DNA of 64,000 bases, taken from NCBI GenBank assembly GCA_009869945.1, contig WIXG01000026.1, positions 1 through 64,000 on the forward strand. The letters are read 5' to 3'. The notes beneath the pieces were generated by a model. It was not told the DNA's origin and made no database searches. It saw nothing but the letters and a program-made list of their open reading frames with translations. How positions within the stretch are numbered: position 1 is the first letter of the stretch; each line of letters starts with the position of its first letter. This document shows, in pieces, positions 9,994 to 60,969 of this stretch. This DNA comes from Mesaphorura yosii. Taxonomy: Eukaryota > Arthropoda > Collembola > Poduromorpha > Tullbergiidae. Position numbers and translations under genes: made by a program.

Positions 9994-10412
9994 CTGAGTT
10001 TCCGTAACATTGAGGAGTCTTGCCATTTCAGCTCGCTCACTTGACGACAAGTACTTTTTTACCTCAAACTGTTTCTCCAACTCAAATATTTGTCTCCCCG
10101 TGAACGTCGTCCGTGCTTTCTTCCTTTTCATATTATTACTTGATTCAGACAGAGATGAGCACGAGCCATTGTCTCCTCCGCCGCCACTGCCATTACCGCT
10201 CAGCAAGGGAAGCGCGTGTGTCAAGTCGAGCTCCTCTTCCTCGTCGCGTCGAGCAACAACCAGCGAGAGACCAACCACGGTTGAACTGTTGTCTTCTGAA
10301 CTATTCCCATTCTCACCCAATGAAACTAATGAGTTGCTCATACCGTTATTATTATTTCGATTATTCGCTTCCTTTCCCTTCTTCTTGCTCACAGATTTCG
10401 GGGCTCCATTCT
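9994..10412 (-). CDS. NK7: NK7 coding exon 2 (homeodomain residues 1-44)
   Basis: The acceptor is a GTGCAG at 10418-10413 with the exon opening AG AAT GGA, completing a Glu codon with the single base from exon 1. The donor CAG|GTTTGT at 9994/9993 cuts after the Gln of VTETQ, the widespread 44/45 homeobox intron site, phase 0. Encoded residues 269-408 comprise a Lys-rich start (SVSKKKGKE), an Asn run, an acidic DEEEELDL block, a Gly/Ser linker and the first two helices of the homeodomain with its basic N-terminal arm (KRKKARTTF). The frame runs past the donor into CPFHIPF, which does not continue a homeodomain, so the splice is required. Long plus-strand open frames over 10010-10499 are antisense shadows of the low-complexity codons. 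Confidence 0.93.
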
Positions 10413-59500: not shown

Positions 59501-60969
59501 GGAACATTGAATAAAATACTTTTTAAAAAGCACGCAAGTAGTGCCAGTCAGCAACGGCAAAGGGAAGGGCAATTGAATGTTGTTCTTTCTACGGACGATC
59601 AATTTAATTAGCGGGGTTTGGCTCGAGTTCAGAGTCTCCACGATAATGGTTCCATTCGGCAATCATTTACTAACATTTTTATTTGGCTCTAAAGGAATCA
59701 AACGTCAGTTGAGACGATAGAAGGGGGAGGAAGAAATGAATCATTATTACGAGTGTACAACAATGAAAAGTGCTTTCATCTAATGAATTGTTCTCCTTTC
59801 GGATTCATAAAGATAATATTATATTAGGTTTGCCTCTTCCTAATAAAATTCTAAAGCTATCATTTATAATCCCTACATGCGACCGTGCTCGATCCTTTGC
59901 TTTGCTCTTCCAGAATCCAAATTAGCTGAACCAATTGACTCGCATTAAACGTCAATACTTGTGTGCATGGAGCGAGTCCGAAATGGCATGCATTTCACTC
60001 AACAGACGCAAACCATTATTTACACACATCGTTTTTGGGGAAAATCATTCCATGTTTACTTTTCATATTAGAACCTGAGCCTCAGCTATTTGCTGGCTTT
60101 GCATCGCTGCCTTTCTACATTAATCCAAATCGGCTAACAGACAGAGGAGCTTAGTAATTAAATTGGCTGCTTACCGGAATGATTGACACGTTCCCTCCAT
60201 AGGTTCGGATTGCCAACTAGTCCCTGCAGGCCCGGCCAGTACAAAGCTGGCCGCGCTAATTCCAATTGCTTCCCAATGGCACCCATCCAGGCTGTTCCAG
60301 CCATATGACTCATTGACATTCCCATCGAGGGTGGAAGTCTACCCAAGTTGGCTGCGTTCGCTGCAGCCGCGCTTGCACCAACGACCGCCGATGCGAGTGC
60401 TGCGACTGTTTGAGATGGTCTGTTGAGAATGTGGTCAATTCCATGTGGATTTCCAGATGCCGTGACCGTGTTCGCTATGGAAGTGAGTGGTGAGTGCATG
60501 CTCTGCGTCAAGACAAGAATTCCAGCGGTTAATTGTTAACGACCCCAAATGAAGATTTGATATAAAACTCGCATACATTAGGAGGTGTAGAGTGATTCTT
60601 GTTGTGTCCTTGAGATCCCGACGTAGAATTGTAGTGCTGCAGCATAGCAGATTTCATTTCAGTCATGGAATGCAATGCTGCCAAAGGCGGACTGCCCAGA
60701 ACAAACGCGGCTGCTGCGGCGGGACTAGTTGCGGCATTGCCACCTCGGCTTACGCTTTCCATATTACCTAATTACATCATTTGCATTTATAATTCAGGGC
60801 ATTTGGCTCAGCTACTCGAAATGTGAACAAGACACACAAACTATTCAAGAAAATGTATCTTTGACTGACACAAACCTGCCGCTAAGCTGTTGAAGTTGAG
60901 CAACGAAAGCATTGACGATGCCGGGGAACCAGCTGTCGGAACTGGCGGGTTGGTGTGAAACTCAAGCAT
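50386..60969 (-). CDS. Nkx6: Nkx6 / HGTX homeobox transcription factor gene, complete coding region
   Basis: Five minus-strand exons (60876-60969, 60577-60767, 60175-60502, 57603-57772, 50386-50577) splice to 975 nt, giving 324 aa. All four junctions are GT-AG and in phase (1, 0, 1, 0). The protein starts [11 protein letters not shown] and carries [14 protein letters not shown], the conserved [18 protein letters not shown] block (53-70), the [12 protein letters not shown] repressor motif (114-125, EH1/TN-like, Groucho-binding in relatives), [10 protein letters not shown] (181-190) with WRER, DKDGKKK-type SEKDGKKK, and a homeodomain (216-275) with [18 protein letters not shown] and [13 protein letters not shown] followed by HAAEMATAK, all diagnostic of Nkx6. 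The tail is acidic ([14 protein letters not shown]). Nkx6 proteins are nuclear repressors acting in neuronal specification in flies and vertebrates. At 324 aa it is shorter than vertebrate NKX6-1 and the fly protein. Confidence 0.95.
50578..57602 (-). other. Nkx6 intron 4
   Basis: 7,025-bp intron, phase 0, between homeodomain positions 46 and 47. No coding sequence was recognised in it; plus-strand open frames there lack family motifs. It is a plausible place for intronic enhancers, but none can be read from the sequence alone. Confidence 0.85.
57603..57772 (-). CDS. Nkx6: Nkx6 coding exon 4 (homeodomain residues 1-46)
   Basis: Encodes residues 205-261: [13 protein letters not shown], then homeodomain helices 1 and 2 through MTESQVK. 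The acceptor is TTATTTAG, the donor AAA|GTAAGT (consensus). The sequence is nearly identical to what I remember of fly HGTX and vertebrate NKX6 homeodomains, including the family-specific [16 protein letters not shown]. Confidence 0.97.
57773..60174 (-). other. Nkx6 intron 3
   Basis: 2,402-bp intron, phase 1, GTAAGC to TTTAG. Contains a perfect GC-rich hairpin at 59234-59258. No coding sequence is recognised. Confidence 0.85.
59234..59258. repeat. Perfect GC-rich hairpin in Nkx6 intron 3
   Basis: CCCGCGTGCT (59234-59243) pairs exactly with AGCACGCGGG (59249-59258) around TGTTG. Strongly GC-rich in an AT-rich intron. The stem is shorter than a microRNA precursor. Confidence 0.6.
60175..60502 (-). 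CDS. Nkx6: Nkx6 coding exon 3
   Basis: Encodes residues 96-204 plus one base. The acceptor is TTGACGCAG ending at 60503, the donor CCG|GTAAGC at 60175/60174, phase 1. It contains [12 protein letters not shown], an Ala/Gly-rich linker, and [20 protein letters not shown]. Confidence 0.93.
60503..60576 (-). other. Nkx6 intron 2 (74 bp)
   Basis: Starts GTATGC and ends ACGCAG, phase 0. Reading through would insert [15 protein letters not shown] and hit a stop, so removal is required for the full protein. Confidence 0.85.
60577..60767 (-). CDS. Nkx6: Nkx6 coding exon 2
   Basis: Encodes residues 32-95, from [10 protein letters not shown] to NHSTPPN, including a poly-Ala run and the conserved [12 protein letters not shown] block. 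The acceptor ATTAG (60770-60768 end) has a poor pyrimidine tract but is the only AG that keeps the frame. The donor is AAT|GTATGC, phase 0. A gene model starting at the internal ATG (60762) would also be open but loses the exon 1 motif. Confidence 0.85.
60768..60875 (-). other. Nkx6 intron 1 (108 bp)
   Basis: Starts GTTTGT and ends ATTAG, phase 1. It joins LNFNSLAA to GNMESVS in frame. Confidence 0.75.
60876..60969 (-). CDS. Nkx6: Nkx6 coding exon 1
   Basis: Encodes residues 1-31. The ATG at 60969-60967 is preceded in frame by a TAG four codons upstream, which favours this start unless TTTAATAG serves as an acceptor just before it. The donor is GCAG|GTTTGT at 60876/60875, phase 1. The peptide contains [17 protein letters not shown], a hydrophobic helix-like motif that I associate with arthropod Nkx6 N-termini. 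Confidence 0.82.

What the first reader, a model, noticed from the sequence alone, without database searches (positions are those of the whole stretch)
9994..60969. NK7 and Nkx6 retained as same-strand neighbours
Seen: two NK-class homeobox genes, same strand, 36 kb apart, with no recognised host gene between. Known: NK genes form an ancient cluster, and as I recall NK5/NK6/NK7-type genes are linked in sponge and annelid genomes, whereas in Drosophila HGTX and NK7.1 are on different arms. Inference: this genome keeps an ancestral NK6-NK7 pair that flies lost, making it informative for NK-cluster history.
Basis: partly seen in the sequence, partly recalled or inferred. Interest (0 to 1): 0.72.

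Follow-up and report, generated by a model that had tools for sequence, protein, structure and literature searches.

The report
Ancestral NK7–Nkx6 homeobox gene pair
An arthropod genome keeps two ancient developmental control genes, NK7 and Nkx6, side by side on one strand, an arrangement already reported in several other arthropods and a velvet worm, so it is a sound but ordinary finding.

Summary
Nkx6 is a complete five-exon gene (60969-50386, minus strand). NK7 lies on the same strand, 35,915 bp between its start codon and the Nkx6 stop. One correction: the window, which starts at the end of contig C26, holds only homeodomain residues 1-44 of NK7. The rest is on contig C695. C26 and C695 overlap end to end by 105 identical bases, the only other match in the genome search, and NK7 then reads in frame through GT-AG introns. 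Between the genes I recognised only a low-copy mobile-looking element.

The NK6-NK7 tandem is in print: part of two ancestral reconstructions, reported in Epiperipatus, Trigoniulus, Tribolium and Argiope (PMC13088399), and 59 kb apart in Danaus (PMC8767184). Hmx/NK5, NK1 and the Msx-NK4-NK3-Lbx-Tlx core are on other contigs.

New here: a Slit-like gene is the next recognised gene beyond Nkx6. Slit is a hallmark of vertebrate Lbx/Tlx loci (PMC2446394), so an ancient Slit-NK linkage is worth testing. The ParaHox gene Gsx lies 203 kb away, which chance could give.

The parts
13666..14470 (-). NK7 exon a (start codon at 14470; holds the eh1-like FILNDIL stretch)
   Evidence: Open frame, GT donor (GTAACT), in-frame stop 177 nt upstream of the ATG; coding signal 19.6 against a top null of 11.1. 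The label eh1-like is recalled.
9994..10412 (-). NK7 exon b, homeodomain residues 1-44, donor after ...VTETQ
   Evidence: Pfam PF00046 positions 1-44, 43.6 bits; acceptor CCGTGCAG, donor GTTTGT
1..9993 (-). Left part of the last NK7 intron. Bases 1-105 equal C695:1-105 reversed. The 3' exon is C695:6048-6965(+), off the window
   Evidence: 105 of 105 bases identical, the only match besides itself in a genome search with window 1-205; tail exon [17 protein letters not shown] on C695
60876..60969 (-). Nkx6 exon 1 (start codon at 60969)
   Evidence: Spliced open frame with GT-AG sites
60577..60767 (-). Nkx6 exon 2 ([14 protein letters not shown] stretch, as recalled for human NKX6-1)
60175..60502 (-). 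Nkx6 exon 3 ([13 protein letters not shown], eh1-like by recall)
57603..57772 (-). Nkx6 exon 4, homeodomain positions 1-46
   Evidence: Pfam PF00046, 44.2 bits
50386..50577 (-). Nkx6 exon 5, homeodomain end ([13 protein letters not shown]) and C terminus with stop
   Evidence: Pfam PF00046 positions 45-57, 19.4 bits, under the cut-off on its own
14471..50385 (.). 35.9 kb interval without a recognised host gene
   Evidence: Coding-signal scan; no N runs
17264..19119 (+). Low-copy mobile-looking element inside the interval (class not identified)
   Evidence: Coding signal 11.6-16.6; no Pfam match for 4 of its frames; diverged partial copies on C1098 (68-77%) and C608 (79%)

Best explanation
The window holds a retained NK7-Nkx6 tandem, a remnant of the ancestral bilaterian NK homeobox cluster, in an arthropod whose core NK cluster (Tlx-Lbx-NK3-NK4-Msx-Msx) lies on another contig. 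Shown here: both genes, their exons, shared strand, spacing and the C26-C695 join. Taken from the literature: ancestral adjacency. Inferred: the two genes work as ordinary homeodomain transcription factors, NK6 in the nervous system. The gene-free 36 kb between them probably holds enhancers of one or both, and it is this regulatory interlock, or plain inertia, that keeps them together.
For: Complete Nkx6 model with GT-AG introns. NK7 in frame across C26|C695 with a unique 105-base end overlap. Tree of 38 homeodomains: Nkx6 with recalled human NKX6-1 (100/99), NK7 with recalled fly NK7.1 (100/69), while Hmx, Tlx, Lbx, Msx and NK1 are filled by other loci. Published NK7+NK6 tandem in four panarthropods and in two ancestral models (PMC13088399); 59 kb apart in Danaus (PMC8767184); both among the NK genes of one oyster scaffold (PMC7566022). 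Probability of chance proximity about 0.001. NK6 in brain and nerve cord of harvestman and spider (PMC13088399).
Against: The NK7+Nkx6 fork is weak (83/66). No reads or second assembly tested the 15-50 kb stretch. No enhancer, chromatin or expression data exist here. In some arthropods the pair is split: Pycnogonum (PMC12220506), and spiders, where NK7 is with the core and NK6 with Msx2 (PMC10726417). The passages I saw of a Lepidoptera survey do not place NK6 or NK7 in its NK cluster (PMC9977156). So strong constraint is not universal.
Confidence: 0.9

Rival explanations
1. Secondary reunion: the ancestor of this lineage had separated the two genes and a later rearrangement brought them together again.
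For: NK genes do regroup: PMC7566022 cites secondary reassembly in drosophilids, and the cluster is reshuffled in butterflies (PMC9977156). The pair is split in some arthropods.
Against: The same pair is reported in an onychophoran, a millipede, a beetle, a spider and a butterfly, which retention explains with fewer events.
Confidence: 0.06
2. Assembly artefact: C26 is a chimera and the genes are not neighbours.
For: The assembly is fragmented (1127 contigs), and repeat copies lie at 17-19 kb and 30.5-30.9 kb.
Against: No N runs of 5 or more in the 264 kb of C26 examined, even composition of the window, a single short tandem repeat in the window, and the result matches the pair known elsewhere.
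Confidence: 0.03
3. The left gene is not NK7 but a diverged Hmx or other NK-like paralogue.
For: Nearest other family by homeodomain identity is Hmx (0.66 to C288, 0.64 to recalled HMX3); SH-aLRT of the NK7 fork is only 69.
Against: 0.97 identity to recalled NK7.1; a separate Hmx is present at C288:66076; the tail QDNISNAEAAEHK fits the recalled NK7.1 tail.
Confidence: 0.02

Closest known systems
NK7+NK6/hgtx tandem of panarthropods (PMC13088399, passages and section 14 read; Tribolium, Trigoniulus, Epiperipatus, Argiope)
   Same: Same two families in sequence; treated there as part of the ancestral bilaterian NK cluster
   Different: In several species NK7 also follows Tlx; here no contig links NK7 to Tlx
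HGTX and NK7.1 orthologues in Danaus plexippus (PMC8767184, passages read)
   Same: Close pair (about 59 kb against 35.9 kb here), on a different chromosome from the Msx-NK4-NK3-Lbx group
   Different: In Danaus HHEX lies 21 kb from NK7.1; here Hhex is on C6. Whether this pair and the core share a chromosome here is open
Vertebrate Lbx/Tlx paralogons (PMC2446394, passages read)
   Same: A Slit gene is linked to NK-class genes
   Different: There Slit is linked to Tlx/Lbx and Nkx3.2 loci; here a Slit-like gene flanks Nkx6, and lysyl oxidase and FGF, relatives of two other hallmarks, are on C317 and C9

Membership tests
Nkx6/HGTX | Homeodomain groups with NK6 | tested here: met
   100/99 with recalled human NKX6-1, 0.95 identity; the reference is from memory
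Nkx6/HGTX | eh1-like and PPLAALHSM motifs N-terminal of the homeodomain | tested here: inconclusive
   [13 protein letters not shown] and [14 protein letters not shown] read in the model; compared only with recalled sequence
NK7 | Homeodomain groups with NK7 and not with Hmx or other NK families | tested here: met
   100/69 with one recalled NK7.1 sequence; own Hmx, NK1, Tlx, Lbx and Msx fall elsewhere
NK7 | Complete gene | tested here: met
   Only with C695 joined: in frame from ATG to stop
NK cluster (NK6-NK7 subcluster) | Adjacent on one chromosome without intervening genes | tested here: met
   one mobile-looking element lies between, and small exons are not excluded
NK cluster (NK6-NK7 subcluster) | Linkage to Tlx or the core cluster | tested here: inconclusive
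   Core on C141; C141 left end has no other match, C695 right end is repetitive; SAXO-like, PI-kinase and Spo11 frames follow NK7
NK cluster (NK6-NK7 subcluster) | Linkage to NK5/Hmx and NK1 | tested here: inconclusive
   No such match on C26 or C695: Hmx on C288, NK1 on C36 and C794. Unplaced contigs, so chromosome-scale linkage is open
Slit (flanking gene) | Four LRR blocks, EGF repeats, laminin G, C-terminal knot (recalled) | tested here: inconclusive
   Four LRRNT, one LRR/LRRCT, one EGF and a weak laminin G match under its cut-off, in this order on the minus strand; a seventh frame had no match. That they form one gene is inferred; knot not sought; best solved-structure matches of one LRRNT exon are other LRR proteins, with Slit lower

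The most novel reading that the evidence does not exclude
Slit-Nkx6-NK7 is an ancient block: a Slit gene was a non-homeobox resident of the bilaterian NK cluster. It is still a neighbour of Nkx6 in this arthropod and of Tlx/Lbx and Nkx3.2 loci in vertebrates, possibly because the genes share midline or neural enhancers.
Probability: 0.3. Interest if true: 0.5.

Novelty: new member of a known kind. Interest (0 to 1): 0.27.

Why it matters
It adds one more, exon-resolved case to the evidence that NK7 and NK6 stayed together from the bilaterian ancestor, in a small-genome arthropod with the uninverted Lbx-Tlx order. The Slit-like neighbour gives a testable hint that a non-homeobox gene has travelled with the NK cluster in both arthropods and vertebrates, which would bear on whether shared enhancers hold such clusters together.

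Tried and rejected
Looked for the missing NK7 homeodomain tail inside the window: absent, found on C695.

Tested whether C695 bridges NK7 to Tlx on C141: not shown. C695 carries SAXO-like, PI-kinase and Spo11 frames after NK7. Its right end is a repeat also found on C24, C254, C139 and C543. The C141 left end matches nothing else, and blastn of C141:1-1100 against C695 gave only 12-18 base matches. The last 110 bases of C26 match C537 (99%) and C92 (85%), repeat-like.

Gsx at C26:264352-264522 was considered as an NK-ParaHox linkage. Rejected as evidence: other genes lie between (a HECT-domain frame and the Slit-like exons; further long frames), and about 0.4 homeobox loci are expected within that distance by chance, taking about 90 loci.

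Other hallmark genes of vertebrate NK loci: lysyl oxidase is on C317 (4 of 4 matches) and FGF on C9 (1 of 1), not on C26, C141 or C695. The remaining hallmarks (Kcnip, Fbxw11/Btrc, Dok, Npm) were not sought.

A codon-usage scan gave no stretch at its threshold of 9 in the window or in 64-125 kb, but only 7 of its own 17 training frames reach 9, so it was replaced by the Markov scan. That scan was trained on 21 frames picked by eye, and their scores are not held out.

A search with 20 kb of the interval listed two repeat copies only and did not list the window itself, so it says little about duplicate haplotypes.

One search scored 150 of 155 candidates and did not list Nkx6 exon 5, so short homeobox exons elsewhere may be missed.

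No arthropod assemblies were available for gene-order comparison.

Full report
Setting. The window is C26:1-64000 of a 93.0 Mb, 1127-contig genome. C26 is 385,345 bp, and the window's left edge is the end of the contig. [quoted passage not shown] family labels by inspection and recall). This fits an arthropod. Its Lbx-Tlx order is not the inverted one that PMC13088399 describes for chelicerates. The species was not identified.

Nkx6. Five exons on the minus strand, 60969-60876, 60767-60577, 60502-60175, 57772-57603 and 50577-50386, join in one frame with a stop; all four introns are GT-AG (sequences). The homeodomain is [60 protein letters not shown]. By molecule name, no NK6 or NK7 structure was among the 60 chains shown of 94 and of 97 matched.

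NK7. Exon a 14470-13666 and exon b 10412-9994 hold the N-terminal part and homeodomain residues 1-44. The tail was not found in 1-10000. A degenerate pattern for [11 protein letters not shown] had four hits in the genome; those on C36 and C794 are NK1, that on C143 has its own upstream half, and that on C695 is an orphan. C26:1-105 and C695:1-105 are reverse complements, 105 of 105, and a genome search with C26:1-205 finds only itself and that place. Joined so, NK7 reads from ATG to stop with GT-AG introns; the last intron is about 15.9 kb. The NK7 fork with recalled fly NK7.1 is 100/69, and NK7 plus Nkx6 is 83/66. The tree has only 60 columns, so deep forks mean little.

Interval. 35,915 bp separate the NK7 start and the Nkx6 stop. 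A Markov coding scan trained on 21 frames chosen by eye gave eight stretches above 9 in the interval. Three (12.1, 16.6, 11.6) form one element at 17264-19119, and five score 9.6-10.3. Five simulated 64 kb sequences reached 11.1, with nine stretches at 9.0 or more in all, about one per 36 kb, so the five are more than the simulation expects though none exceeds it. The element has no Pfam match in the four frames tested but has diverged partial copies on C1098 and C608. So no host gene is recognised between the two, though small or odd exons cannot be excluded.

Neighbours. On C695 after NK7: SAXO1-2-like frames (one over and one under the Pfam cut-off), a PI3/PI4-kinase frame and a Spo11 frame; a further frame had no match. 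To the right of Nkx6 the next recognised gene, on the same strand, runs from about 121 kb to 75.8 kb: LRRNT (120.8 kb), LRR/LRRCT (89.0), LRRNT (86.7), LRRNT (80.9), LRRNT (78.0), EGF (76.6) and weak laminin G (75.8), the layout that I recall for Slit. That these exons belong to one gene is inferred. The LRRNT exon at 78 kb matches only one other place, also in this stretch. Against the Slit label: a solved-structure search with that exon ranks other LRR proteins first, with Slit at E 2.9e-9, and the C-terminal knot was not sought.

Other NK genes. C141 (180 kb) holds Tlx (818, +), Lbx (56403, +), NK3 (73107, +), NK4 (80713, -), Msx (97413, -) and Msx (137597, +). Hmx is on C288, NK1 on C36 and C794 (82% identical over 2,081 aligned bases). 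Noto is on C72, two Emx on C11, Hhex on C6, NK2-type genes on C35 and C433. None of these gave a match on C26 in the PF00046 search, which scored 150 of 155 candidates in the genome and can miss short exons (it did not list Nkx6 exon 5). C26 has one more listed homeobox gene, Gsx, at 264352-264522 (98/76 with recalled GSX2). Whether the NK7-Nkx6 pair and C141 share a chromosome is open.

Literature. PMC13088399 (passages and section 14 read): two published reconstructions agree on the NK7+NK6 tandem, two others shown there do not have it, and NK6 follows NK7 in Epiperipatus, Trigoniulus, Tribolium and Argiope. PMC8767184 (passages): about 59 kb apart in Danaus. PMC7566022 (passages): NK7 and NK6 among the NK genes of one oyster scaffold. 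Against universal retention: PMC12220506 (passages), split in the sea spider; PMC10726417 (passages), spider NK7 with the core and NK6 with Msx2; PMC9977156 (passages), NK6 and NK7 not among the genes of the Lepidoptera NK cluster. PMC6643891 (passages): fly NK7.1 at 3R 88B4-6. PMC2446394 (passages): Slit is a hallmark of vertebrate Lbx/Tlx loci. Searches for Slit with NK6 or the NK cluster listed 0, 1 and 7 papers; I looked into two of these (PMC6050708, PMC2446394) and saw no report of a Slit-NK6 link in invertebrates. The library lacks most subscription papers, so this is weak.

Verdict. A real, correctly named and well-precedented NK7-Nkx6 tandem. What the finding missed is that NK7 runs off the contig and can be completed on C695, and that a Slit-like gene flanks Nkx6. 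The mechanism (shared or interlocked enhancers in the gene-free interval) is inference only.

Noticed in passing
C26:75782-121345 (L010, L011, L014), right of the window: Slit-like gene (four LRRNT, LRR/LRRCT, EGF, weak laminin G) is the next recognised gene beyond Nkx6, same strand; Slit is a hallmark of vertebrate Lbx/Tlx loci.
   Followed up: partly
C26:264352-264522 (L029): ParaHox gene Gsx/ind on the same contig, 203 kb from Nkx6; chance not excluded.
   Followed up: partly
C141 (L034-L039): Core NK cluster Tlx-Lbx-NK3-NK4-Msx-Msx on one 180 kb contig, with a second Msx and the uninverted Lbx-Tlx order.
   Followed up: partly
C36:40447-40617 (L030) and C794:11790-11960 (L033): Two NK1/slouch copies with identical homeodomains and 82% identical surrounding DNA: a duplicate or a very diverged haplotype.
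   Followed up: partly
C621:12349-12519 (L059): Diverged Hox-like homeodomain (RKRGRQPYTRYQ...[37 protein letters not shown]) on a 31.8 kb contig, outside the main Hox contigs.
   Followed up: no
window 17264-19119: Low-copy mobile-looking element with several open frames, no Pfam match in four of them, only diverged partial copies found elsewhere (68-79%).
   Followed up: partly
window 12347-12658, minus strand: Open stretch in NK7 intron 1 with coding signal 13.3, above the simulated top of 11.1; could be an extra NK7 exon or chance.
   Followed up: no
window 30452-30897: Interspersed repeat, 90% identical to a stretch of C269 and 82% to a shorter one on C91.
   Followed up: no
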